From Lonicera japonica (Eukaryota; Streptophyta; Magnoliopsida; Dipsacales; Caprifoliaceae), in contig CM038465.1 in the NCBI GenBank assembly GCA_021464415.1, positions 19,003,839 through 19,067,838 of the forward strand: a DNA stretch of 64,000 nucleotides. Reading direction: 5' to 3'. Below are positions 29,168-60,463 of this stretch, in pieces. How positions within the stretch are numbered: the first letter of the stretch is position 1; every line of letters begins with the position of its first letter. The notes below the pieces were generated by a model that saw nothing but the letters and a program-made list of their open reading frames with translations, made no database searches and had not been told where the DNA came from. A program made the translations under genes and the position numbers.

Positions 29168-32100
29168 TCAATCGGAGTCGTTGTCATCATCATCATCATC
29201 ATCATCATCGTCGTCTTCATCCTCATCGCTGCTATATAGATCATTGTTAAACCCTTCAGCATCATCGGAGTCTTCATCCTCGTCATAATCATCATCCTCA
29301 TCTTCATCTTCATTTTCATATACAGGAATATTTACAAACGGTACTGGACCTAGGTTGATAAATAACTCCGATATAGGAAGACATATTGCATCCGGCTCTT
29401 GATAAGGTTCATCTACTTCATACAGTGGAGTCGCCATATCGTCCCTTGCAAGTGTGGCCTCGCTGAACGTACCTCTGTGTGCCATATGGTTGACGACTTT
29501 CCAACCCTCACCAGCCAACGGATCATCTATATAGAACACTTGGGTTGCCGTCGTGGCCAGAATAAATGGAAAGTCATCGTACCAACTACTATTCATGTTC
29601 ACGGAAGTAAGACCACGATTATACTGTACACTTCCGGGAACAGTAGGGTCGGTGTTATACCACTTACACTTAAACAACACAACTGGCATGCGTTCCGCAT
29701 AAGTCAGTTGGACAACTGATTGCAGAATCCCGTAGTATGTCAGATCACCTGCCACGCATGTCACTCCACTATTCTAAGTCTTCCGAATCCGGTCTCGATG
29801 CTCAGTAACAAATTTGACACCGTTCACCTCGCACTGAGAGAAAATGGTGCACATCATAGGCTGAGATGCAAGGATCTGTATCTCCCGATTGTATTTAGGA
29901 TAATGTATTTGTAGCAGATGGAGCATCTGCATAATAATATATATATATATATATATGGAACATCAATGAAATGTAAATATGCATGCAACAAGTGAAAGTA
30001 AGTTAAGGCTGAAAGTTTACCCATCTGGGGAGGTGGTCAAGAAATGACGCCACACGATCAGCATCAGTGCCGTGTGGAGCTATTTCAGCAAATTGTCGGC
30101 GGTGAGTTTCAAAATACCATTCTGTTTCTGTACAGTTTATCATAACACACCAGTGAGCCGTCGCAATTTGTTTCTTACTAAGACGGATGTTTCTGACACA
30201 ACCTTTGGGCTTGACGAGGTAGGAGACAACGAAAATGTTCCACTGAGGTGAATCCGATATGACTTCATCACTCGCGTTAGGATCATGTAGATAGTTATTG
30301 ATGAAAGTCACACACTCGTGCATGATGTTCTTCTTGGCAATACACCCCTCTGGGTAACACTTGTTTCCAACATCTTTCTTGTATTCTCCGAGCTGCCTGA
30401 AAGATTTCTCAATTATATAGTACAAATGTATACAATTAAAGACAATTATATATAATATCCTAAGATATGAAATAATACCTTTCAGTGGAAAACATCCAGG
30501 TATAATGCACGGGACCGGTGAGCAGGACCTATTCCGGCAGGTGGATGCAGAGATGGACCATGATGGTAAAGAAAGCTGGCGGAAATATCATCTCCAACTT
30601 GCATAGGATCATGAAAATATCGGTCTGCAGTTGATGGACATCTAATTTCTTCAACTCTCGGGCGTAAATTGTCTGAAAGAATCTGCAATACTCTACTAAC
30701 GCGTCGGCGACATCTCTTCCCAAATATGGTCGGATAACCACAGGAAGAACATGCTGAAGCATGACATGGCAATCGTGAGTCTTCAATCCAAAAAACTTTT
30801 TATCAGACGGTCTGATCTTACTCTTTAGGCTTCCAGCATAACCTCTTGGATATTTAGCAGCTGCAACTCGATCAAATACGTCTCTGAGATCCCTAGGACG
30901 AACTGTGTAATTCGCCTGAGGTAACGTCACTTTTCCTGACGGCCCTATCCTCGGCCAAAGATTGCTGCGTATGCCCATATTCTTTAGAGTTAATCGAGAT
31001 TTCATATCGTCCCTAGTCTTTCCATCGAGACCTAAAACGGTGCCCAAGATGTTGTCGCATACATTTTTTTCGATGTTCATCACATCTAATGCATGTCTCA
31101 CACTCGATGATGTCCAGTAAGGCAGCTCCCAAAATATACTGACGTGAGTCCAACACAATATCTTTTTAGCTACCTAACATTAAGTACAACACAACTTATC
31201 AATTTACAATATCACAAATTAACTTATTACGATATCACAACTACTGTTAGTTTGAGCCGTACCTATTTGAAGTCAGGATGCGGATGCAAAGAATTCTGAG
31301 GGTAAGAAAAACTGTTGGTAGCTTCAAGAACCTGACGTGCAGACTTTCTTTGTGGGGCGGGTCTAAGCTCTGGCTCCCCATTAAACCTTTCTGGTATCCT
31401 CCGATAAGGGTGATCTTTGGAAAGCCATCTACGCGCCCCCTGATATGACATCCTTCCATTATTGTGAACCGCAATAATATCATCCAAACATATGGGACAT
31501 GCCTTGTACCCTTTTGTCTGAATACCTCCCAACATTCCTAATCCTGGAAAGTCGTTGATGGTCCACATAACGGCTGCCCTCATGTTGAATGCCACTTCAC
31601 CGTATCGATCCCAAGTTGAAACCCCCGTCTCCCATAGTATCTTAAGTTCATCAATCAGTGGTCTCATAAACACATTTAGAGTCTTTCCCGGACTCTTAGG
31701 GTCGGATATTAGTAAGACTAGAATGTTAAACTCCTTCTTCATACACAACGAAGGCGGAAAATTATAAGGCATCGCAATAACAGGCCAGCAACTGTAGGGA
31801 ACCTCCGTAGTAGAGTACGGACTGAACCCGTCTGACGCTAGAGCAAGACGTAAGTTTCTAATGTCGGCGGCAAATTGCGGTTGGGACCTGCAAAATGACG
31901 AGACAAATTCCTTAATATGAAAATAATTAGACTAACAATTTATTAATTGTATGTGTACGAACTGTGAATATATACGTCACCTGTCGAAATCCTTCCATGC
32001 TTCTCCATCCGCTGGATGTCTAAGATATTCAGTATCTTCTCTTCTTTCCCCATGCCACCGTATTTCCTTTGCAATATGTTTACAACTATACAGACGCTGC

Positions 32101-32894
32101 AACCTCGGTGCCAATGGGAAGTACCGAACCATCTTCCGGGGAATCCGTTTGCCACCGCCTGTATTTTCTTCTTCCTATCTTGACTCGCCGCAAATAGGAC
32201 ATTGATTTAGGTCTTTACCCTCCTTGTAAAACAAGTAGCAGCCGTAGTAACACTCGTGGATGACCTCGTAACCCATGCCAATCTTCTTGAAGGCCTTTTT
32301 TACAGCTTTGTATGAGTTAGGGTACTTGTTCCCTTCGGGCAACAGGTAATTAATTTCAGCAGCCCACTTGTTGAAGGATGTGTCTGCCATATTGCAACTC
32401 TGTTTCAGTTGCAACAATCTAAGCATTGAAGCCAGCGCCGTGACTTGACTACCCTCGTACAGTGGAGTCACTGCTTCGTCTAAGAGACGTTGATATGCTA
32501 TCAAATTTTCTTTGGCGACAGGGTCGGCATGAAATGCATTGTCAACACCAGGGTGATTATACGATTCACGAAAAGGAAAAGCATCTTGTACAAAGTCCAT
32601 GGTCGGGTTACTCGAAGACGCCCTGTTCTGTTCTACTTGACATTGCGAAGTTGTCTCTGGAATTTCCCCATGTAGGTTCCATACTGTATATGACTCCATT
32701 ATACCTGAATTGGTCAAGTGGATGTATATTTCATCTAATGTCACCCGTTGGCCCATGTTGAAACATTTTTTGCAAGGACATGGATACAATCCAGTCGAAC
32801 TGTTGCCATTTTCTCAAACATACTCTAAGAACTCCATTAGCCCCACAATGAATTCCGTTGAACCTCTTGAGCATTTCATCCAGTTCTTATTCAT
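29168..32894 (-). pseudogene. TNP2-type CACTA transposase, degenerate
   Basis: The minus-strand start is at 32894 (MNKNWMKCSRGSTEFIVGLM). The N-terminal transposase-associated domain has CPCKKCFN and HLTNSGIMESYTVWNLHGE, with a TGA shortly after the start. The TNP2 core follows: RIPRKMVRYFPLAPRLQRLY, EYLRHPADGEAWKDFD, SDGFSPYSTTEVPYSCWPV, YNFPPSLCMKKEFNILVLLI, LIDELKILWETGV and ACPICLDD. Next come the DUF4218-like part (30482-31158, HDCHVMLQHVLPVVIRP) and the DUF4216-like part (29168-29764, VVLFKCKWYNTDP), with an Asp/Glu-rich tail. Stops at about 32180, 31263 and 29776 show decay. Introns with GT-AG borders separate the blocks. Transposase cuts the CACTA ends. Confidence 0.85.
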
Positions 32895-37020: not shown

Positions 37021-37551
37021 TATTGTGCTAAGATACCGTTAGAACATGCCTTAGTATAAGCATAGGATCGACCGGACAATTATGCGTACAATAATTAAAG
37101 AAACAAACAAGTACCAATAATATTCAAAAATACGAAAAACAAGAGATTAAGGAAGAAAACAACCAACCAAGCACGCAAACAATTATGTGGTATCGGCAAA
37201 ACCACCACTAATCTACCGGGTGATTGCTATTATTAATGAAGATCAATTCCGAATACACGTGCAAAGCAAACCCTAGCCACCAATTAGAGCTCGAAATATT
37301 ATCTTTCAAATATACTTTCTAATACATCTAGTAAACAATACAATACAATACAACTCACTAAATAAAACTTATGACAAGGGTTCTATTTATAGGGTATAAA
37401 TCCTATAGGTCTAAGATTGCACAAAGCCAAAACCTACTAAAAGTTGGATAATACAAATCCAAATAAGAATTGGACATTACAAAGCCAATTAGGAATTAGA
37501 CAATACAAAACCAAATATGAATATGATTCCTATACAGAGCTAAATCTTGAA
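37021..37551 (-). repeat. 3' LTR of the outer copia
   Basis: The plus strand reads TATTGTGCTAAGATACCG at its start, a decayed TG end compared with TGTTGTGCTAAG in the other copy. It ends near CTATACAGAGC followed by a GAATTCTCCACCTTGGAGAC purine-tract region (minus-strand PPT). The exact inner border is uncertain by a few bases. Confidence 0.7.
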
Positions 37552-37870: not shown

Positions 37871-40037
37871 TGTAGGTCGGAAAATACCCTAGAGGGGGGG
37901 GTGAATAGGGTTTTAAAAACGTAATGCGGAATTAAAACGTTTTTAAAATATTTAAGCAAAGTAATTTAGTTAAATAAGTTTATCAAGGAAAACAATCAAT
38001 TAAATAATCAATCCCAAGAATAAGCAATAATATAAGCAACTTCAATCAATTAATATAACAAATAAATAAAGAGATTGAGTAAGAAAGATTGAACCAATTG
38101 AAGTCAAGATTTTTTGTCCACACGGTTCGGCTTGGAAACCCCTACTCCGCGCTCGGTTAGTTCCCCGAGAATTTCCACTATAACCGATCTCCTTCGGGTG
38201 AAGATCAAACCTTTACAAGTGTAATTCTTCTCACTACACTCTTTACAAATATTGCTTGACCACAATATTCCCACAAGAATCCCTCTTGCTAACTATGAGA
38301 TTTACCTCTCACAATTTCACTCAACAAGAATTTACCTTCTTGTCTATCTTATGAGAGGGAAAATACCCTAGAGGGGGGGTGAATAGGGTTTTAAAAACGT
38401 AATGCGGAATTAAAACGTTTTTAAAATATTTAAGCAAAGTAATTTAGTTAAATAAGTTTATCAAGGAAAACAATCAATTAAATAATCAATCCCAAGAATA
38501 AGCAATAATATAAGCAACTTCAATCAATTAATATAACAAATAAATAAAGAGATTGAGTAAGAAAGATTGAACCAATTGAAGTCAAGATTTTTTGTCCACA
38601 CGGTTCGGCTTGGAAACCCCTACTCCGCACTCGGTTAGTTCCCCGAGAATTTCCACTATAACCGATCTCCTTCCGGGTGAAGATCAAACCTTTACAAGTG
38701 TAATTCTTCTCACTACACTCTTTACAATATTGCTTGACCACAATATTCCCACAAGAATCCCTCTTGCTAACTATGAGATTTACCTCTCACAATTTCACTC
38801 AACAAGAATTTACCTTCTTGTCTATCTTATGAGATTTACCTCTCATAAATTGTCTAATACAATTGTTTGGTGACTCACACCAATTAACAACTCTATCTAA
38901 GTGTGTATAAGATACAATATGAAGCTCACACTAGAGTTTGCTTGATTGATCAAATAGATAGCTCAAATGATGAATATAAATGATCAATAAAATAGCTTGA
39001 CTTTGGATAGATGAAAGATATATTTGTAGAAGTGTTCAAGCTTATAAAAATGTGTCTAGGAGGTCCAATATATAGTCCCAAAATAGATATAGCCGTTTGT
39101 AGTGGATTAATTAATTAATGGGTCAAAATTGCACATTTGTCAAAGTTCCAACAGCTAGTTTTGACAAAAACAATTCAAATTTGTTTTGTTAATTTCTCCC
39201 AATTTGACCGTTGGATCATGCTCAAATTTTAGTCAAAATTGCCAGGAGATGTTGTCTAACTACTGTAAAAATTTCAAAATGATCAGAATTCGGGAAGGCC
39301 TCCATTTTACCGTTAGATTAAAACTGGGCAAAAATTGAGCGAATTTTAAACGAAAAATAAAAATATTTTTCCAATTTAATAATTTAGTTCCAAATAAAAT
39401 TCTAATGATTTTTGAACCTCAAATATATGTTTCTAAGATACCCATTTTTATTATAACTTAAAATATGATCATTTAAAATTAATATGAATTTCTTTTGAAA
39501 CTCGGTTTTTGTAAAATGATGTTTTTCAAATAAATTCAATTTCAAGCTAGTTTGAATCAATCTTTAAAAGATGCATGAATATGTTTGAGCTATAGGAATT
39601 TGATCAATAAAGTATCTTTACATAAAATCTAAGTAAACACTCAATTACCGAATAGATGAGTCTTCGAATGCTTCAATTTGTTTCTTCAAATTGATTCTTC
39701 ACTTGAAGCTTTTCCTTGAAGCTTTTGCATATGATTCTTGATCTTTGTGCTTCATGGATTTGCATTGATAGCTTGTGGGTGATGAGATTGATCTTCTTGT
39801 CTTGTCCAACGCTTGTAGAAGAATGATCTGAATTCGGGTAGATCGGTTTTAGTCGAATGCTTCGTTGACTTGATCGGATATTGATTGAATGATCCTTGTC
39901 AAACTTCCTTTCAGGAATCATGCTATTCTTGATTTTCCAAATAAGAAATCTATAATCTTATATCAAGAACATGTTAAATTACACATGATTAATTTATTGT
40001 TATTATCAAAATAAGATTAAGACCTTCAAGGTCAACA
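37871..40037 (-). repeat. 3' LTR with an internal 477-bp tandem duplication
   Basis: It starts TGTAGGTCGG and ends AAGGTCAACA. Compared with the 1690-bp partner it is 2167 bp long because its first about 477 bp are repeated from 38354 (GGGAAAATACCC, lacking TGTAGGTC). The two copies differ at a few sites, for example CCGCGCTCGG versus CCGCACTCGG. Confidence 0.88.
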
Positions 40038-40700
40038 ATCTCCCCCTTTTTGATGATGACAATAAATTAATGTGTGTTTTCAATTACAAGCATAAATAGC
40101 ATATGAATAATTGAAATATGCTCCCCCTCAATTTATGCATAGATAAAATAAAAGATTATTAAAAGCATTACAAATATTTGAGATAGTTTTAAAAATTAAT
40201 AAAGGAATTTTGATCTCAAATAAGGTTTTCAAAAGAAGACAATTGTCAATGTTAAAGACATAAAACAATTAATGGTCTTACCAACATTAATTGTCACCAA
40301 CACACATTTTCTCCCCCTATGGCAACATCAAAAAGGGATCAAGGCCACGGAGAGAAAATGGTAACTCCAAGAGTGCTTCGTCTATGAGGCCAAGGTGTGT
40401 ATGCCTCTCCATCGTTTGCCATTTTTTTTTTTTTTTTTTTTTTTTTTAATGGCTCAATAAAATGTCAAAACACGAAATATAATATGCAAAAGAAAACAAG
40501 TATGGATATTAAAGACATAAAGCATTTAAAAGTCTTACCACAATATTTAAAGTCGGTATAAAAAATTTTACCATAGCAAAAAAAATCTTACCGCAGCAAA
40601 AAAAAAAAGAAAGAACTTACCTTTTACCGCAGTATCAACATTACGCACATTTTCTCCCCTTACGTCAACATCAAAGAGGGATCTAGACCGTGCTAGGGCG
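40038..40700 (-). other. Repeated polypurine tracts and 3' non-coding region
   Basis: The minus strand carries AAAAAGGGGGAGAT directly at the LTR (40038-40051), the purine tract for plus-strand priming. Further CTCCCC(CT) blocks occur at 40121, 40311 and 40653, the last two followed by similar GGCAACATCAAAAAGGG / GTCAACATCAAAGAGGG text, so the unit was duplicated. A 26-base T run lies at 40422-40447. Multiple purine tracts are a described trait of Sireviruses. The plus strand here would be the promoter region of the LBD ORF. Confidence 0.7.
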
Positions 40701-40861
40701 GTGGACTTTAGATGCACGCGGGGGGGCGCTGTATTTTTGACTTTTTAGGATGACAGTTTTTCATTTTCGGGATTCTTTTAATTGCTTTGCCTCTTGTCCC
40801 CTCATTCTTGTTGTCTTCCTCGAGATCCATTTTCTTCTTATAACTTTTATAGGAGGTACCC

Positions 40862-41641
40862 ATGAGTAAGAGAAAGCAAATCACAAGTATGTCGAATACC
40901 TTCCGTTGTACAGGTTCGTCTTGTGCTGCTTGTGCTTATAAACGCAAGAAATGTCATCCATGGTGTGAATATGCACAAATTTTTATGGATGTGATTAGTC
41001 GTCAAGATTATCGTACAATCTTCACCGTTTTGGGGGTAAATAGTGTTGCAAATATTTTAAAAGAAATTCCTCAATATCAATATCTTGAGACTCTCTATTC
41101 ATTTCTTTTTGAAGCTAAGGCGAGAGTCGAGAATCCTAGTAAAGGTTGTACTGCGCTCATTGTTTCTCTTGAACAAAAGGTACAAGAGTTACAATCACGG
41201 GTGACAGCGTTAGAGGCTTTGCAGTCACGAGTGACAACATTAGAGGCTCGATTAGGAGAGTCTTCTAGCGCTAACCAAAGCTTTTCTTTTGCTCATCCTA
41301 TAAGTTCTACAGGGCTCCTATCGTTAGCAAAAAATGTTGCACCTGGAATTCTTCCGACTACCGAAAATATTTTAGACCATAGTGCTTTTCTAACTAATGT
41401 GGGTTTGCCGGCATATCCGACTCTGTTAGATTACCAAGCTGCTTTAGAAGGCTATTCATCGCAATTTTCTCAAAGTGGTACTGTTGCGGAGGTTGCCGAG
41501 TCATCGAGTCCTGATTGGACAACTCTATTAGATATGGAGCATAATTTTGTTGATAATTCTTCTTCTAGTCTCGATGCTGTTTTGAATTTTGATTCTGATG
41601 ATCTTCAGATTATTTTCCCTTCTTCTTTGAATGATATATAA
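40862..41641 (+). CDS. LOB-domain (LBD/ASL) protein-like ORF inside a retrotransposon
   Basis: A complete 259-residue ORF with no intron. The start is ATG at 40862 (a second Met is 8 codons on). Residues about 20-36 contain CAACAYKRKKCHPWC, which fits the LOB C-block CX2CX6CX3C. A diverged GAS block follows (FTVLGVNSVANILKEIP) with an ENPSKGC segment in place of the usual DPVYGC. A leucine-zipper-like region (LEQKVQELQSRVTALEAL) is partly duplicated. The C-terminus is Ser-rich and acidic with LLDMEHNF and LDAVLNFDSDDL, resembling an activation domain. LBD proteins are plant DNA-binding regulators of organ development. It lies antisense to gag and convergent with it. Divergence from ordinary LBDs suggests long residence in the element. 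Expression is unknown. Confidence 0.8.
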   Translation: MSKRKQITSMSNTFRCTGSSCAACAYKRKKCHPWCEYAQIFMDVISRQDYRTIFTVLGVNSVANILKEIPQYQYLETLYSFLFEAKARVENPSKGCTALIVSLEQKVQELQSRVTALEALQSRVTTLEARLGESSSANQSFSFAHPISSTGLLSLAKNVAPGILPTTENILDHSAFLTNVGLPAYPTLLDYQAALEGYSSQFSQSGTVAEVAESSSPDWTTLLDMEHNFVDNSSSSLDAVLNFDSDDLQIIFPSSLNDI

Positions 41642-41689
41642 TAATTTTGGACTGCAAAAGTATTGTTAGTTTATAATAACATGCAAAAT

Positions 41690-42248
41690 GAAGACTTATG
41701 TTTGTTAACCAAGTTGACAAGCATCACAAATTTTATTTTTAACAAATTAAGTTTTTGGCAATCATTTAACTAATTCATTTTTAGATAACATGTGAATTAA
41801 ATCCATATTAGCATAACTTAATCTTCTATACCATAACCAAGAAACATCATTCAATACGGATAAACATTTAACATCTTGTTGAGACAAGTCATCAAGTTCA
41901 AGAGTATATACGTTATTAGATCTATAAGCAACAAACAAGATATAATTATCACTATTATTTTTAACAATGCAACATTCAGATTTAAAAATAATTTCATAAC
42001 CTTTATCACACAATTGAATAATATTAAGCAAATTATGTTTTAAACTATCAACTAGTAGAATATTATCAATATAAGAACATTTCTTATAAACTTTACCTAT
42101 ACCAGCCCTTGGCGTTGTCCCCAAAAGTCACATTCCCTCCTTTCTTGGGAATAAGACTTAAGAAGTTGTTCTTGTCTCCCGTCATGTGCTTTGAGCAATC
42201 ACTATCCAAGAACCACTTGGTTTTGCTTCCTTTGGCTTTCAAGCACAC
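41690..42248 (-). pseudogene. Nested copia: protease and integrase N-terminus remnant
   Basis: After the gag stop the minus frame continues with VCLKAKGSKTKWFLDSDC and KHMTGDK; the protease motif is DSD where the family has DSG. A small frameshift near 42105 follows FGDNAKG. Next come SYIDNILLVDSLKHNLLNI and the pre-integrase domain WLWYRRLSYANMDLIHMLSK. After a TGA, remnants of the integrase zinc finger KICDACQLG end near 41690. Integrase core, RT and RNase H are absent; the LBD region begins instead. Confidence 0.8.
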
Positions 42249-44000
42249 CTACACCATAACTTTAAGTAACTTCTCCTTTGGTACCCAAAATGTGTTGGGT
42301 CCCTTTGGGTTAGCAAACATAATGGTTCCTTTTGGAACCCAAGCAAGCTTCCTTTTAGGAAAACTTTTATTTCGATAAAAACAGTGATTCACATAATGAG
42401 TATTTCTTCCACAATATGAACAAAGATGAGTGGAATTATGTGGTGTGTATGTTTTAAAAAAAAATTTGTAATCCTTTTGGTTGTCAATTTGGTTATAGCC
42501 CAAACCGGCTTTGTCAAAAACACATCTTTGCATTCCTAATAATTTATCCAAGTTATCCTTTCCTTTGGTGAACTTGGCTAGACTATTAGTTAAGTCATCC
42601 ACTTGATCTTTCAATTTGACATTTTCTAATACAAGTGAGTTTGGAGTTTCTTTCTCTTTTCCTTTCTTCAAGGTTTTGTTTTCATTTTTCAAAAATACAT
42701 TTTCTTTCTCAAAGTTTTCACACTTGCTAGAAATAATCAAATTTTCCTTTTTGAGGCTTGCATACATTTTAGATAAATTTTTAAATTTTTTATGCAATTC
42801 CTCAAACATATCATATAATTCTTCATAGTCATTCTCATCATGTATATCATTATTAATAGAGGCATTATCATCACTAGATGAGTCATAAGAAGAGTGTACC
42901 TCATCGTCTCTTGCCATAAGGCAAAGATTTGCCGTTTCCTCGTCGCTAGAATCGGCATTAGATTCACCTTCTTCGGAATCACTCCAAGTACCTTTGAGGG
43001 TGTGTCGTACTTGCTTGAAGGCTTTATCTCTTTTGTCTCTTCTTTCCTTTCTTCTAACCGGGCAATTTGTTTTGAAATGCCCTGGTTCATGACAATGGAA
43101 ACACTTCTTTTCTTCCTCATTTTCAACTCTTGGTTGAATAGATCGATCATTGTTCCTTCTTGATGAAGAATCAAAGTTGTTTCCTTTTCCTTGAAACTTC
43201 TTCTTCTTAGCTAGAAATTTTATGAATTTTCTAGAAAGGAGAGTCATATCCTCATCTCCTACCATCAACTCATCATCATCTTCTAGTTGAGTTGCTTTGA
43301 GAGCTAGTGACTTTTTGGCTTTTGAATCACTTTCTTCTTCTCTCGCCAATTCCTTCTCATGGGTTTTAAGTGAACCCAAAAGCTCGTCCATGCTAAGTGT
43401 TTTAAGATTCTTTGCTTCTTGAATCGCCGTCACTTTTGGTTGCCATTTCCTTGGAAGAATCCTTAGAATTTTTCTTATTTTATCTTCATTAGAATAAACC
43501 TTTCCAAGAAGATCTAAATCATTAGTAATAATGGAAAATCTACTATACATGGAAGCAAGAGATTCATTAGGCTCCATTTTAAATAATTCATAATCATGAA
43601 CAAGCATATTTATGTTATCATCTTTAACTTGAGTGGTTCCTTCGTAGGTAACCTCAAGTTTGTCCCAAATTTCTTTAGCCGTTTTGCAACTAGAAATTTT
43701 GTTATATTCATCCATACTTAATGCACAATTTAAAGCATTTAAGGCTTTAGCATTATATTGAATTTTCTTAATATCATTTTCATCATACTCGGACATTTTC
43801 TTAGGAACAATTTTTCCACTATCATCCTTTTTGGTAATTTCATAGGGTCCTTCAACTACAACTCTCCATTGTTCAAAATCACTAGATTGTAAAAAAATAC
43901 TCATTCTATTTTTCCAATAGCTATAATTTTTACCATCAAATAGAGGTGGTCTATGGGTGGAGAGACCTTCGAAAAGACCGGTTCCTTGATATATAGACAT
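42249..44000 (-). CDS. Copia Gag polyprotein (Sirevirus type), open frame
   Basis: It starts at ATG (complement of 43998-44000), MSIYQGTGLF, 43 bases from the primer-binding site, and runs 583 codons to TAG. The UBN2/gag domain has PPLFDGKNYSYWKNRM, EIWDKLEVTYEGT and LVHDYELFKMEPNESL. A zinc knuckle CFHCHEPGHFKTNC follows, then an acidic linker, a long coiled coil (KKENLIISSKCENFEKENVF) and a second knuckle-like CSYCGRNTHYVNHC. Gag forms the particle that packages element RNA. The TAG at 42249 lies where related elements probably continue into pol, so it may be a mutation or a gag-pol boundary. The frame is otherwise uninterrupted. Confidence 0.85.
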   Translation of the reverse strand: MSIYQGTGLFEGLSTHRPPLFDGKNYSYWKNRMSIFLQSSDFEQWRVVVEGPYEITKKDDSGKIVPKKMSEYDENDIKKIQYNAKALNALNCALSMDEYNKISSCKTAKEIWDKLEVTYEGTTQVKDDNINMLVHDYELFKMEPNESLASMYSRFSIITNDLDLLGKVYSNEDKIRKILRILPRKWQPKVTAIQEAKNLKTLSMDELLGSLKTHEKELAREEESDSKAKKSLALKATQLEDDDELMVGDEDMTLLSRKFIKFLAKKKKFQGKGNNFDSSSRRNNDRSIQPRVENEEEKKCFHCHEPGHFKTNCPVRRKERRDKRDKAFKQVRHTLKGTWSDSEEGESNADSSDEETANLCLMARDDEVHSSYDSSSDDNASINNDIHDENDYEELYDMFEELHKKFKNLSKMYASLKKENLIISSKCENFEKENVFLKNENKTLKKGKEKETPNSLVLENVKLKDQVDDLTNSLAKFTKGKDNLDKLLGMQRCVFDKAGLGYNQIDNQKDYKFFFKTYTPHNSTHLCSYCGRNTHYVNHCFYRNKSFPKRKLAWVPKGTIMFANPKGPNTFWVPKEKLLKVMV

Positions 44001-44042
44001 GATCGTAAACTCTAAGATTGTTAAATCAAAATAAGAGTACAC

Positions 44043-44054
44043 CCTCTGATACCA
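44043..44054 (-). other. Primer-binding site of the nested copia
   Basis: TGGTATCAGAGG on the minus strand, two bases from the LTR end; initiator tRNA-Met type. Confidence 0.8.
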
Positions 44055-44056
44055 AT

Positions 44057-45746
44057 TGTAGGTCGGAAAATACCCTAGAGGGGGGGTGAATAGGGTTTTA
44101 AAAACGTAATGCGGAATTAAAACGTTTTTAAAATATTTAAGCAAAGTAATTTAGTTAAATAAGTTTATCAAGGAAAACAATCAATTAAATAATCAATCCC
44201 AAGAATAAGCAATAATATAAGCAACTTCAATCAATTAATATAACAAATAAATAAAGAGATTGAGTAAGAAAGATTGAACCAATTGAAGTCAAGATTTTTT
44301 GTCCACACGGTTCGGCTTGGAAACCCCTACTCCGCGCTCGGTTAGTTCCCCGAGAATTTCCACTATAACCGATCTCCTTCCGGGTGAAGATCAAACCTTT
44401 ACAAGTGTAATTCTTCTCACTACACTCTTTACAAATATTGCTTGACCACAATATTCCCACAAGAATCCCTCTTGCTAACTATGAGATTTACCTCTCACAA
44501 TTTCACTCAACAAGAATTTACCTTCTTGTCTATCTTATGAGATTTACCTCTCATAAATTGTCTAATACAATTGTTTGGTGACTCACACCAATTAACAACT
44601 CTATCTAAGTGTGTATAAGATACAATATGAAGCTCACACTAGAGTTTGCTTGATTGATCAAATAGATAGCTCAAATGATGAATATAAATGATCAATAAAA
44701 TAGCTTGACTTTGGATAGATGAAAGATATATTTGTAGAAGTGTTCAAGCTTATAAAAATGTGTCTAGGAGGTCCAATATATAGTCCCAAAATAGATATAG
44801 CCGTTTGTAGTGGATTAATTAATTAATGGGTCAAAATTGCACATTTGTCAAAGTTCCAACAGCTAGTTTTGACAAAAACAATTCAAATTTGTTTTGTTAA
44901 TTTCTCCCAATTTGACCGTTGGATCATGCTCAAATTTTAGTCAAAATTGCCAGGAGATGTTGTCTAACTACTGTAAAAATTTCAAAATGATCAGAATTCG
45001 GGAAGGCCTCCATTTTACCGTTAGATTAAAACTGGGCAAAAATTGAGCGAATTTTAAACGAAAAATAAAAATATTTTTCCAATTTAATAATTTAGTTCCA
45101 AATAAAATTCTAATGATTTTTGAACCTCAAATATATGTTTCTAAGATACCCATTTTTATTATAACTTAAAATATGATCATTTAAAATTAATATGAATTTC
45201 TTTTGAAACTCGGTTTTTGTAAAATGATGTTTTTCAAATAAATTCAATTTCAAGCTAGTTTGAATCAATCTTTAAAAGATGCATGAATATGTTTGAGCTA
45301 TAGGAATTTGATCAATAAAGTATCTTTACATAAAATCTAAGTAAACACTCAATTACCGAATAGATGAGTCTTCGAATGCTTCAATTTGTTTCTTCAAATT
45401 GATTCTTCACTTGAAGCTTTTCCCTTGAAGCTTTTGCATATGATTCTTGATCTTTGTGCTTCATGGATTTGCATTGATAGCTTGTGGGTGATGAGATTGA
45501 TCTTCTTGTCTTGTCCAACGCTTGTAGAAGAATGATCTGAATTCGGGTAGATCGGTTTTAGTCGAATGCTTCGTTGACTTGATCGGATATTGATTGAATG
45601 ATCCTTGTCAAACTTCCTTTCAGGAATCATGCTATTCTTGATTTTCCAAATAAGAAATCTATAATCTTATATCAAGAACATGTTAAATTACACATGATTA
45701 ATTTATTGTTATTATCAAAATAAGATTAAGACCTTCAAGGTCAACA
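44057..45746 (-). repeat. 5' LTR of the nested copia (1690 bp)
   Basis: TGTAGGTCGG...AAGGTCAACA, almost identical by eye to 38354-40037. It is followed by target duplication ATTTG and then the resumed outer-copia RNase H frame. Confidence 0.88.
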
Positions 45747-45751
45747 ATTTG

Positions 45752-47197
45752 CCAACTGAATTGCACTCTAACTGTCACAGTGCACCACCACTTTTTTCGG
45801 CTTCAAACCGAGATCACTAGATAAACTACAGAGCCAGATGGCCTCCTTGACAGCAATATATTCCGCCTCCATGGTAGATAACGCTACCACACTTTCAATC
45901 ATCAACTTCCAATTCAACGGACCGCTACCTAATGTAAACACATAACCCGTAGTTGATTTGCGCTTTTCTAAGTCGACGGCTTAGTCCAAATCCACAAAAC
46001 CCTCAATAGTTGACATTCCGAATTTTTCAAATATCAACCCCTTGTCCGTTGTACCCCGTATATATCGTGGAGCCCACTTAATGGCATGGCAATGCGATTT
46101 TTCAGGGTTCGCCATATACCTACTAACAATGCCCACTATTTAAGCAATATCCGGTCGAGTACATACCATGTCATACATCAATCTCTCAACCGTACTTGCA
46201 TAAGAAACTTAATCCATGTACTCTACCTCTGCCTTGGAGTTTGGAGCCATCGTTGCTGAGAGTTTGAAGTACGAAGCTAACGAGACACTCATTGACTTTA
46301 AGTATTCCATACCGAATCTAGCAATCACTTTCTCAAGATATTCCCTTTGTGTAAGACATAATTGTCTCCTCTTCCTATCTTGCACGATCTCCATCCCCAA
46401 AAAATTTCGCACTCCATCCAAGTCTTTCATCTCAAACTCCTTGCTTAAATGAGCTTTCAATATGTCGATCTCCACTAAGCTCCGAGAACCAATGAGCATA
46501 TCATCAACGTATAGGAGTGAATATATGAAATTGATAGATTCGAGCCTTTTAAAGTAAACATATTGATAAAATTCACTCAGATTAAACTTCTGCGCGATCA
46601 TGAACATGTCAAACGTCTTGTACCATTGACGGGGGGGACTGCTTCAATCCATACAACGACTTTCAAAGTTTGCACACACTATTTTTCTTACTAACAACTT
46701 TGAATCCCTTCGGTTGATAAATATAATCTTTTCCTCTAGGTCCATATGCAAGAACTTTGTTTTGACAACGAGTTGTTCAAGTTCGAGATCAAAATGCGCT
46801 ACCATAGCCAATAATGCCTGGATCAAGGTGTGCTTCACAATCGGAGAGAACACTTCATTATAATCCACCCCTTTCTTTTGCACATAACCTTTGGTTACCA
46901 ACCTTGCCTTGAAACAAACACCGAACCCTAGAGCCTCGTCTTTCTTAGTGAAAACTCACTTGCACCCAATATACTTCTTCCCCTTTAACAAATTGCATAG
47001 TTCACAAGTTTGATTTTTTCGGAGAGATTCCATCTCATCCCCGATAGCCGCTTTCCAATTTGCACTATCGCTATCGCTAGAATCCATAGCTTCCCGATAC
47101 AAAGTCAGCTAATCCTCGTAACCTATTATATAATGCATACGCCACCATATCTTCATACCCATATCAAACCGGTGCACGTCGAGCCCCAAGTTCCCTT
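45752..47197 (-). pseudogene. Outer copia: reverse transcriptase and RNase H
   Basis: Minus-strand blocks are MESLRKNQTCEL and KGKKYIGCKWVF-type text near 46960-47050, VTKGYVQKKGVDYNEVFSPI (46644-46901), the catalytic box YLLYVDDMLIGS-like at 46500, EFEMKDLDGVRNFLGMEI, and RNase H text with MEAEYIAVKEAIWLC near 45840-45880. TAG interrupts the segment that reads CDS-stop-SAIQLAN before the insertion point. Frames change near 46620 and 46205. The YVDD active-site residues remain. Gag through integrase is missing upstream. Confidence 0.8.
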
Positions 47198-47212: not shown

Positions 47213-47730
47213 TGTTGTGCTAAGATATCGCTAGAACAAGCCTTAGCACAAGTGTAGGATCGACCGGACAATTACACGTACAATAATTAAATAAACAAGC
47301 ATTACTAATATTTAAGCAATATGAAAAACAAGAGACTAAGGAAGAAAACAACCAATCAAGCACGCAAGCGATTATGTGGTATTGGCAAAACCGCTACAAA
47401 TTCACCGGACGGTGGCTATTATTAATAAAGATAAATTTCGAGTACACACACAAAGCAAACCCTAACTGCCAATTAGAGCTCCCAATATTATCTCTCAAAT
47501 ATACTCTCTAATCTAGCTAGTAAACAATATAGTATAACTCACTTAATAAAACCTATGACAAAGGTTTCATTTATAGGATATAAATCCTATGGGTCTAGGA
47601 TTGTACAAAGCTAAAACCGACTAGAAATTAGATAATACAAATCGAAATAGGAATTGGACATTACAAAGCCAATTAGGAATTGGATAATATAAAACTAAAT
47701 AGGAATAGGATTCCTATACAGAGCCAAATC
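47213..47730 (-). repeat. 5' LTR of the outer copia
   Basis: It starts TGTTGTGCTAAGATATCG and ends near CTATACAGAGCCAAATC. It aligns throughout with 37021-37551 but with many substitutions. Confidence 0.7.
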
Positions 47731-58402: not shown

Positions 58403-59257
58403 CATATTAATGAAAATTTTGAACTCTAAGAAAATCATGATCATTTTATTTTCAATCTTGGTTACTATATCATTGTTTTATAGCATCTCACCACATCTCT
58501 CAACTTATTTTCCATCTTCTCATTCAAATTAAATGTTTTTCTTATCATTTTATATGTTGATATCCAACGGGGCCATAAAGTACTCTAGGATTTAAATTGA
58601 TACAATTAGAACTTTGAGGTATATAATAAAATTGACCATAACTTCAGGATTCATTTAATAATTAACCTATTTCTTTTTTATGGTGAGGGGGAGTTTTGAA
58701 AAATCATAATTGTATTATGTTTTTTGGTATTAAATCATGTTCGTTTTGTGATTTCCATTTAGTTATGAGTTACTATTGCCCTTGTTTTGTGTATAGTTAA
58801 ATAAAAATCATACATGGCTCTATTATTGAGCAAGAATTACACAATTCCTCTTAACTCAAATTACATTTAATATGTATGATTCAAAAACTTAGGATTTACT
58901 TACTTGACATGTTAGTGTCAAAGGGTTGAATAATACAAAAATCATAAACTTATAAGGACATATACGATCCACGTTGCTTGTGGGTACATATATATATAGT
59001 ACATTTTTTTTAATACATCGATGCAGGAATCGAATTAAAGGCATCCTGATAGTCGGAAGTGAGTTTTCACCCCTAAGCAAATCCTAATGGTTATGTATAA
59101 TAAATTTTAACCATACCATGCATGTTCCAAAGAACAAATTAAAACAAACTATATATATACACAGTGTATCATGCTAATATATATATATATAGTTTTTATG
59201 TTTGTTTCTTTAGTTATTATTTTCATTGATGGCTGACATGTCCTTTATAATCAACAG
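58403..59257. other. 3' end of TNL intron 1
   Basis: AT-rich with no gene. It ends in a pyrimidine-containing stretch and the acceptor TCAACAG at 59251-59257. Confidence 0.6.
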
Positions 59258-60332
59258 GCATGAAGCGAAATGTATCGATATTGTTGTTAAAGAGATTCAT
59301 AGTAAACTGCCACATACAATTTCAAGCGAAGATGAGCCTTTAGTCGGAATGAAGTGTCGTATAGAAGAAGTAACTTCATTGTTGGATGCAGAGTCGAATG
59401 CTGTTCGCACTGTTGGCATATGGGGATTGAGTGGAATAGGTAAAACAACTTTAGCAAGAGCCGTGTTCGATAAAATCTCACATCAGTTTGAAGTTGCTTG
59501 TTTTCTTCATAACGTTGGAGAAGTTTCAAGGAAGGATGGTCTCGAACGTTTGCAGGAGCAACTTCTTTCGAAAACCCTAATGGTAGATGACTTGCAGATA
59601 ATGAATGTTTATAAAGGAATCAGTATAAGAAAACGACTATGCTTTAAATGTGTTCTTCTCGTTCTTGATGATGTTGACCATTTAGACCAATTAGAAGTGT
59701 TAGCTGGAACGCATTGCTTGTTTGGTCCCCGGAGTAGAATTATCATAACAACAAGGGATAGACATTTTCTTGTTGCACACGGAGTGGATGAATCATATGA
59801 GGCGAGATTATTAAATGATGGTGAAGCTATTCAACTATTTAGTTGGAAGGCCTTTAAGGGTATTTGTCCTACAGACAATTTCGTGGGCCTCTCAGATCAA
59901 GTAATACACTTAGCCGGTGGCCTTCCTTTGGCTCTTAAAGTATTGGGTTCCACACTATATAGTGAAAACTTTTCTTTTTGGAAAGCTTCATTGGAAAAAC
60001 TAAGCAAAGAAGGCCCGGATGGCGATATTCTTAAAAAACTCAAAATCAGTTTTGATGGTTTAGATAAAAAAGTGCAGGAAACGTTCCTAGATATTGCATG
60101 TTTCTTCGAAGGACAGGAGAAAGAACATGTATCAATAATACTAGACAGTTGTGATTTTTACCCAGGTTATTCTATACCTATTCTTGTTCATAGATCATTG
60201 ATATATGTTTCAGAACATAATAGACTTTGCATGCACCAATTGATACAAAAGATGGATCAATATATTGATCGCGAGAAGCCTAGAAGGTTGTGGCTTACCG
60301 ATGACGTCGTATGTGTATTAAAAAGTAGCATG
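59258..60332 (+). pseudogene. TNL exon 2, NB-ARC domain, open frame
   Basis: This is the only long undamaged exon (358 codons plus a split Gly). Motifs in order are P-loop GLSGIGKTTLA, RNBS-A region FEVACFLHNVGEVS, kinase-2 VLLVLDDVDHL, RNBS-B SRIIITTRDR, GLPLALKVLGS and an ARC2 block with FLDIACFFEG. The MHD position reads MHQLIQKM, with Gln replacing the Asp that contacts the nucleotide. The upstream ATG at 59226 is not a real start: an acceptor at 59257 and frame continuity with exon 1 show this is an internal exon. The donor is ATG|GTGAGA at 60332. Confidence 0.9.
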
Positions 60333-60463
60333 GTGAGAAGTTCTTCAAATTGAAAGCTTCCACCTTCCATTTGAATTGTAGTTAAAAAGAAATTATGAAT
60401 GCATAGTGTCTATATTTCTTTATTTTGTTACTAATTATATATACTATATTTCTTTGTTGTTAG

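What the first reader, a model, noticed from the sequence alone, without database searches (positions are those of the whole stretch)
40862..41641. Intact LOB-domain transcription-factor ORF carried antisense inside a Sirevirus-like retrotransposon
Between the two LTRs of a recently inserted copia element, the missing pol (integrase core to RNase H) is replaced by a complete 259-codon plus-strand ORF. Its CAACAYKRKKCHPWC matches the LOB C-block spacing CX2CX6CX3C, followed by GAS-like, zipper-like and acidic regions. Its frame is intact while pol is decayed, and it is much diverged from ordinary LBD proteins. A non-autonomous element propagating a host-type regulator in antisense would be unusual. 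I know of antisense extra ORFs in other plant LTR elements but not of an LBD one.
Basis: partly seen in the sequence, partly recalled or inferred. Interest (0 to 1): 0.9.

Follow-up and report, generated by a model that had tools for sequence, protein, structure and literature searches.

The report
Honeysuckle jumping genes carrying LOB regulator
Retrotransposons in a honeysuckle genome carry, on their opposite strand, a gene for a LOB-type DNA-binding protein that selection has kept intact in many copies and that two unrelated classes of retrotransposon share.

Summary
ORF 40862-41641 encodes a real LOB domain (Pfam PF03195, E 1.2e-20), antisense to gag inside an intact, very young Sirevirus-type copia element (37871-45746, TSD ATTTG, LTRs 99.8% identical) that lacks integrase, RT and RNase H. 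It is not a one-off: the home genome (inferred Lonicera japonica 'Sijihua') gave 147 scored near-full-length matches, 101 without inner stops; 30 of 30 loci examined (this one included) share the layout LTR-spacer-LOB-protease remnant-gag. The LOB domain is under purifying selection (pooled dN/dS 0.28; the element's gag 0.26); the C-terminal tail is not constrained within the family. The same leader+ORF module also sits antisense downstream of pol in Tat-type Ty3/gypsy elements. TE-borne LOBs form one group far from 24 host LBD genes (100/100); copia-borne copies are one subgroup (100/99). The direction of the transfer between superfamilies stays open. Most likely this is an accessory gene for a trans-acting DNA-binding regulator that serves the elements; that role is inferred, without expression or binding data. 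Antisense accessory ORFs are a known kind; a LOB one, one in Copia, or one shared between superfamilies was not found in the library searched.

The parts
40862..41641 (+). LOB-domain ORF (259 aa), antisense to the element
40919..41209 (+). LOB domain, residues 20-116 (C-block CX2CX6CX3C included)
   Evidence: PF03195 E 1.2e-20; purifying selection
40622..40861 (+). Leader / putative antisense promoter shared with gypsy-borne copies
   Evidence: about 69-81% DNA identity to gypsy-borne copies; promoter activity inferred
37871..45746 (-). Whole non-autonomous Sirevirus-type copia element, TSD ATTTG
44057..45746 (-). 5' LTR
44039..44054 (-). Primer binding site (TGGTATCAGAG type)
42249..44000 (-). 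gag, 583 aa, open
   Evidence: Retrotran_gag_2 E 8.9e-28
41642..42248 (-). Protease-region remnant of pol; integrase, RT and RNase H absent
   Evidence: read; same place in 30 of 30 loci; Pol_BBD match in the sister locus L075
40038..40621 (-). Linker with three exact AGGGGGAG octamers (at 40040, 40121, 40311), the terminal one followed by AT/TG
   Evidence: definition in PMC2829016
37871..40037 (-). 3' LTR, with an extra partial copy of its own end at 37871-38357

Best explanation
The ORF is an accessory gene of LTR retrotransposons that encodes a DNA-binding, coiled-coil LOB-domain regulator. SHOWN: it has a real LOB domain; it is carried at one fixed antisense position by a multi-copy, non-autonomous gag-plus-LOB Sirevirus-type copia family; its LOB and coil part is under purifying selection, as gag is; the same leader+ORF module is carried antisense downstream of pol by Tat-type gypsy elements. 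INFERRED: a host LBD gene was captured once, long ago, by an LTR retrotransposon, with a promoter running against gag-pol, and the leader+ORF module later passed between a gypsy and a copia lineage (direction open). The protein is made from its own antisense promoter, enters the nucleus, dimerises through its long heptad helix and binds DNA. There it raises or times expression of the elements in trans, which would explain why copies with a working LOB domain keep being the ones that spread. The non-autonomous copia is moved by enzymes of an autonomous relative.
For: LOB HMM and 5ly0 matches; 10 of 10 members of a divergent set match LOB. 147 scored near-full-length matches (2206 candidates), 101 with no inner stop by my count. 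30 of 30 loci share the layout with the ORF antisense to gag. Pooled dN/dS over 49 copies: LOB 0.28 (codon bootstrap 0.15-0.55), residues 117-135 0.14 (0.05-0.66); gag C-part 0.26 over 30 loci. Variants seen in one copy are nearer neutral (LOB 0.66) than shared ones (0.34), as expected if constraint acts on the spreading lineage. Diversity at LOB codon positions 1/2/3 is 0.029/0.011/0.066, and the gap fraction is 0.000 in the alignment windows over the ORF. LOB dN/dS between this copy and 7 gypsy-labelled ones 0.26-0.42. The shared module includes the leader. Gypsy carrier with gag, protease, RT, RNase H and integrase domains next to a LOB ORF. One TE group against 24 host LBDs, 100/100.
Against: No RNA, small-RNA, localisation or binding data. 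The canonical LBD motif GCGGCG (recalled) does not occur in the LTR, spacer or leader of this copy; it occurs in the leader of 4 of 30 copies, so control through that motif is not supported. The tail, where an activation domain would be expected, has dN/dS 1.42 (0.82-2.76) for residues 136-236 and 1.05 (0.51-2.26) for 237-259. One wobble-matched minus-strand frame gives as low a ratio (0.27 against 0.26), so dN/dS alone does not fix the strand; the LOB homology does. 20 of the loci used for dN/dS were picked as stop-free, which may lower dN somewhat. Against the three P0006-type or unresolved copies the LOB ratio is higher (0.46-0.63).
Confidence: 0.65

Rival explanations
1. The element-borne LOB protein works mainly on the host: it pairs with host LBD proteins through its coil, or competes for their sites, and so alters meristem or stress programmes in a way that favours transposition.
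For: LOB and coil part constrained while the tail is not, as a dominant-interfering form would need; long heptad helix 92-136. Pairing of LBD proteins with each other is recalled knowledge.
Against: Strong divergence from host LBDs, 23-35% identity and a stem of 1.61; no interaction data.
Confidence: 0.2
2. Passenger: a captured host gene fragment amplified with the element, without function for it.
For: Tail unconstrained; plant elements are known to transduce gene pieces (PMC7264820).
Against: LOB dN/dS 0.28, open frames in 101 of 147 scored matches, presence in two superfamilies, old common group.
Confidence: 0.07
3. The RNA or DNA matters, not the protein: antisense transcription or the leader acts in cis, for example through dsRNA or as a spacer.
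For: The leader is conserved across gypsy and copia; antisense RNA effects are discussed in PMC7264820.
Against: Codon-position pattern and conserved LOB protein features. The LOB homology is at protein level.
Confidence: 0.06
4. Host LBD genes that merely lie between repeats, so that the association with the element is accidental.
For: LBD proteins are ordinary plant proteins.
Against: Same layout in 30 of 30 loci; TE LOBs are a separate group; none of the 24 host LBD loci matched the element's gag, LTR, spacer or protease region.
Confidence: 0.02

Closest known systems
Antisense additional ORFs between pol and 3' LTR (aORF-3R): maize Grande gene23, rice RIRE2, Silene Retand ORF4/TRP28, PvRetro13 ORF2
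   Same: Separate antisense gene in the 3' part of an LTR retrotransposon, kept in most copies of a family; some are nuclear or predicted to bind DNA (PMC7264820, PMC11963269).
   Different: The examples seen are gypsy-type with TRP28, SMC-like or no recognised domains. Here the product is a LOB-domain protein and the module is also present in a Sirevirus-type Ty1/copia family.
AlkB/2-ODD (m6A demethylase) ORF of orchid Ty3/gypsy elements (PMC9289625)
   Same: Host-derived domain stably carried as an additional ORF, in a gypsy lineage with dual RNase H.
   Different: RNA-modifying enzyme, gypsy only. That survey's 15 filtered extra domains were all in Gypsy; LOB is not named in its main text. 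It used RT as marker, so an RT-less family like this one would not enter it. Its B3 domain in Aegilops elements is the nearest transcription-factor precedent.
LBD/ASL (LOB-domain) transcription factors, e.g. Ramosa2
   Same: LOB domain with CX2CX6CX3C C-block and a coiled coil after it.
   Different: 23-35% identical to the host LBDs, separated by a stem of 1.61 changes per column; cores altered (LGVNSV for FGASNV, ENPSKGC for DPVYGC); intronless ORF.
Sireviruses (SIRE1-type Ty1/copia)
   Same: PPT octamer, AT/TG attachment site, multiple PPT copies, primer-site type.
   Different: No integrase, RT or RNase H and no env-like sense ORF seen; carries the antisense LOB ORF.

Membership tests
LOB-domain (LBD) proteins | Match to Pfam LOB PF03195 over the whole domain | tested here: met
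   profile 1-96 of 99, 74.4 bits vs cut-off 24.2
LOB-domain (LBD) proteins | C-block CX2CX6CX3C | tested here: met
   residues 21-35 of P0001. In one search all 24 host rows and all 22 TE rows kept had the spacing; TE rows were picked by a C-block pattern and one relative (P0021) was dropped for lacking it
LOB-domain (LBD) proteins | Class I zipper LX6LX3LX6L (recalled) | tested here: inconclusive
   strict pattern broken (V114), but heptads L103-L110-L117-V124-L131 and one predicted helix 92-136
LOB-domain (LBD) proteins | Sequence-specific DNA binding | not testable with these tools
   no assay; canonical motif absent from LTR and leader of this copy, in 4 of 30 leaders
LOB-domain (LBD) proteins | LOB fold | not tested
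Sirevirus (Ty1/copia) | PPT AGGGGGAG followed by AT and the LTR's TG | tested here: met
   minus strand, octamer 40040-40047, AT 40038-40039; definition PMC2829016
Sirevirus (Ty1/copia) | Multiple identical PPTs in the linker | tested here: met
   3 exact octamers, at 40040, 40121, 40311
Sirevirus (Ty1/copia) | Copia-type gag | tested here: met
   Retrotran_gag_2 E 8.9e-28
Sirevirus (Ty1/copia) | RT phylogeny within the SIRE lineage | not testable with these tools
   RT absent here; the autonomous partner could not be looked for because the genome search did not complete
Tat-type Ty3/gypsy (second carrier, L082 beside the LOB of L078) | Order protease, RT, RNase H, second RNase H, integrase | tested here: met
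   Asp_protease_2, RVT_1, RT_RNaseH, RVT_3, Integrase_H2C2, rve in order (pieces scanned apart)
Tat-type Ty3/gypsy (second carrier) | RT tree placement in Tat/Retand/Ogre | not tested
   no reference RT set was fetched
Antisense accessory ORF (aORF-3R) | Antisense, near the 3' LTR, in most copies, conserved like other element proteins | tested here: met
   30 of 30 loci antisense, though these loci were found by the ORF itself; LOB 0.28 vs gag 0.26
Antisense accessory ORF (aORF-3R) | Own antisense transcript | not testable with these tools
   no RNA data available

The most novel reading that the evidence does not exclude
A selfish transcription factor: LTR retrotransposons of honeysuckles own an anciently captured, independently evolving LOB-family regulator that moved as a promoter+ORF module between Ty3/gypsy and Ty1/copia, so that two unrelated retrotransposon superfamilies may share one trans-acting regulator, and a non-autonomous family is kept going by gag plus a regulator alone.
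Probability: 0.42. Interest if true: 0.9.

Novelty: new variant of a known kind. Interest (0 to 1): 0.76.

Why it matters
Origin and function of antisense accessory ORFs in plant retrotransposons are open questions; [quoted passage not shown] Here the product belongs to a well-studied host DNA-binding family, so targets and partners can be tested directly. It would be a recognisable host domain stably held by a plant Copia-type element, and a gene module shared between Copia and Gypsy. Practical point: in this genome most scored PF03195 hits fall in a lower-scoring group that looks TE-borne (126 of 150; not each checked), and TE LOBs appear as gene models in a sister species, so LBD family counts in honeysuckles need care.

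Tried and rejected
Considered and rejected: chance ORF (LOB E 1.2e-20); host LBD gene beside TE insertions (30 of 30 identical layouts, separate group, no element pieces in the 24 host loci); single-copy transduction (147 scored matches); decayed passenger (dN/dS).

Weakened on re-check: a first tree of 21 LOB segments rejected one gypsy group (p-AU 0.009), which I had read as transfer from gypsy to copia. Without L090, the deepest gypsy-labelled row, the test no longer rejects (p-AU 0.19). The direction is therefore left open and the odds in this report were lowered a little for it.

Led nowhere: scans of viral contigs and genome contigs found no relatives. GCGGCG/CGGCG in LTR, spacer and leader of this copy: none; GCGGCG in the leaders of 4 of 30 copies. 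Fold search was never available. The AlphaFold model is moderate overall (mean pLDDT 62.5; 73-96 in the blocks of residues 21-130; tail mostly under 50). The carrier of the P0006-type copies (L083, L086) and of L084 stayed unresolved. L090 has a gypsy-type RNase H piece about 0.4 kb behind its LOB ORF, not a polyprotein end. L079 is called gypsy only by its likeness to L078. L080 was left out of the DNA trees because its LOB frame is broken. The species behind P0012, P0029, P0035, P0090 (short ENA contigs) and P0022 (short lgn contig) is unknown.

Literature: the held open-access library was searched, seen as listings with titles and abstract starts; no listed paper reports a LOB domain in a retrotransposon. 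Subscription papers and preprints are not held. Steinbauerova et al. 2011 was not read (cited through others).

Full report
What is there. The plus-strand ORF 40862-41641 (259 aa, P0001) encodes a LOB domain: Pfam PF03195 E 1.2e-20, residues 20-116 over profile positions 1-96 of 99; the closest solved structure by sequence is the LOB protein Ramosa2, 5ly0, E 4.9e-16. The C-block CX2CX6CX3C is exact. After it runs a long helix (92-136 in the model) with heptads L103, L110, L117, V124, L131, then a tail of mostly low confidence.

The carrier. The element reads on the minus strand from 45746 to 37871 and is flanked by ATTTG on both sides. Its LTRs are 99.82% identical over 1684 columns with one mismatch; at a commonly used rate of 1.3e-8 per site per year (recalled) that is about twenty thousand years. 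It has a TGGTATCAGAG primer site, a 583-aa copia-type gag (Retrotran_gag_2 E 8.9e-28), a protease-region remnant, no integrase, RT or RNase H, then the antisense LOB ORF, and a linker with three AGGGGGAG octamers, the last followed by the AT/TG junction that marks Sireviruses (against PMC2829016, passages). It sits inside an older copia element whose LTRs are 84.6% identical.

The genome. The window is G000:C3:19003839-19067838 of an 886,079,548-base assembly. The size and a C4 of 79,566,881 bases fit the Lonicera japonica 'Sijihua' assembly (886.13 Mb, 9 pseudo-chromosomes, scaffold N50 79.57 Mb; PMC9130202, passages); this identification is inferred. Protein relatives are nearly all Lonicera macranthoides gene models: 14 of 15 hits, 42 of 46, 74 of 78; the rest are short contigs of unnamed ENA or lgn sources.

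A family, not an accident. A whole-genome search with the protein scored 147 matches (2206 candidates at the first look), near full length, 84-100% identical. By my count of that table 101 have no inner stop and 46 do. The 30 best loci (the window's own among them), read with 1.5-kb flanks, show LTR, spacer, LOB ORF, protease remnant and gag in the same order and relative orientation in 30 of 30; in one of them (L009) gag breaks off into LTR sequence. These loci were found by the ORF, so copies of the element without LOB would not be seen. Missing pol is thus a property of the LOB-bearing family, which is non-autonomous. The LOB Pfam model in the same genome gives 24 hits at 110-148 bits, which I take as host LBD genes, then a gap, then 126 hits at 80-87 bits (150 scored of 1605 candidates). 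None of those 24 host loci matched the element's gag, LTR, spacer or protease region. A search with a diverged member (P0006) gives 176 matches (2231 candidates), many of them broken.

Selection. I used 49 copies: L001-L050 minus L006, which has an inner stop. L031-L050 were chosen from stop-free rows, and one best match per locus was used. Mean pairwise dN/dS over the whole ORF was 0.64, for LOB 0.27 and for the part after residue 116 1.06. Pooled with a codon bootstrap: residues 1-19 0.58 (0.17-2.46), LOB 0.28 (0.15-0.55), residues 117-135 0.14 (0.05-0.66), residues 136-236 1.42 (0.82-2.76), residues 237-259 1.05 (0.51-2.26). Nucleotide diversity at codon positions 1, 2, 3 was 0.029, 0.011, 0.066 in LOB and 0.060, 0.056, 0.043 in the part after it. 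Variants seen in one copy are nearer neutral (LOB 0.66) than shared ones (0.34); residues 136-259 give 1.04 and 1.07. This is the pattern expected when constraint on LOB acts on the spreading lineage and decays after insertion. The gag C-part of the 30 loci gives pN/pS 0.26, with stops in 4 of 30. Frame control for residues 20-135: plus frames 0.26, 0.83, 2.19, minus frames 0.74, 0.27, 1.51; one wobble-matched minus frame is as low as the LOB frame, so the strand rests on the LOB homology.

A second carrier. In loci L076, L077 and L080 the minus strand downstream of the LOB ORF ends a gypsy polyprotein. L082, next to the LOB of L078, holds a 1411-codon open pol frame with aspartic protease, RVT_1, RT_RNaseH, a second RNase H (RVT_3), integrase zinc finger and core, plus a gypsy gag domain (scanned in pieces), the order known for the Tat group. 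L085 and L089 carry the same integrase end (98-99% identical to L082) behind the LOB ORF; L087 and L088 are further copia-borne copies. DNA likeness between the window and the gypsy-borne copies L076-L080 starts at about 40622 (somewhat earlier in single rows), runs through the leader into the ORF, about 69-81%, and is 75-77% in the leaders of L085 and L089. In L076-L080 no match to the protease region, gag or LTR was seen within the flanks held. So a leader+ORF module is shared. LOB dN/dS of this copy against the 7 gypsy-labelled ones is 0.26-0.42; against L083, L084 and L086, whose carriers are unresolved, it is 0.46-0.63.

History. In a tree of 22 TE-borne and 24 host LOB domains the two groups are separated at 100/100 by a branch of 1.61 (P0021 was dropped for lacking the C-block pattern). 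The 11 copia-borne copies form one group (100/99). A single gypsy group was rejected with L090 included (p-AU 0.009) but not without it (p-AU 0.19). L090 is linked to gypsy only by an RNase H piece about 0.4 kb behind its LOB ORF (RT_RNaseH_2 E 4e-16). The data therefore fit one old capture of an LBD gene and at least one passage between gypsy and copia. Gypsy to copia is my lean, since the copia copies are one tight group, but it is not shown. A Sirevirus PPT-like unit in the gypsy leaders could argue for the other direction.

How it most likely works. Shown: the LOB and coil part is selected, the position is fixed in the copies examined, and the leader is conserved between carriers. Inferred: expression from the leader on the antisense strand, nuclear action as a dimeric DNA-binding regulator in trans, favouring spread of the carriers. 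Not supported: control through the canonical LBD motif, absent from LTR, spacer and leader of this copy and present in 4 of 30 leaders; and no amino-acid constraint shows in the tail. The main rival is interference with host LBDs through the coil.

Compared with what is known. Antisense accessory ORFs near the 3' LTR are an established class (Grande, RIRE2, Retand, PvRetro13; PMC7264820, parts 1-2 of 3 read; PMC11963269, passages, where 97% of Retand clusters have antisense TRP28 ORFs). A survey of 121 angiosperm genomes found 15 filtered extra domains, all in Gypsy, with a B3 domain in Aegilops; LOB and Lonicera do not occur in its main text (PMC9289625, section 12 and passages; supplements not seen). 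That survey used RT as its marker, so RT-less families like this one could not enter it. I therefore rate this a new variant of a known kind.

Noticed in passing
37871-38357: The 3' LTR begins with a near-identical partial copy (about 480 bp) of its own end, a tandem duplication inside a very young LTR (reverse-transcription slip or assembly artefact).
   Followed up: partly
37023-37546 and 47215-47730: Older copia LTR pair (84.6% identical) whose element, with an RT-like remnant at 46209-46607 minus (by eye), was split by this insertion.
   Followed up: partly
window 40295-40346 and 40637-40690; leaders of L076-L080: A PPT-like unit of the Sirevirus linker occurs twice here and also in the gypsy LOB leaders; its bearing on how the module moved is unexplained.
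   Followed up: partly
G000:C6:35686582 and 35692324; G000:C6:10081407 and 10087017: Pairs of LOB copies in the same orientation 5.6-5.7 kb apart, suggesting tandem elements sharing an LTR.
   Followed up: no
P0011, P0016, P0026, P0027, P0034 (Lonicera macranthoides gene models): Parts of the TE LOB protein are joined to unrelated exons in annotated genes; annotation artefacts or exonisation of the module.
   Followed up: no
P0012, P0029, P0035, P0090, P0022: Diverged relatives on contigs of 0.6-2.1 kb from unnamed ENA or lgn sources; may be other species or transcripts.
   Followed up: no
59229-60353: 374-aa ORF that by eye resembles an NB-ARC disease-resistance fragment.
   Followed up: no
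29168-32756 minus: Several ORFs that by eye resemble a CACTA-type transposase remnant.
   Followed up: no
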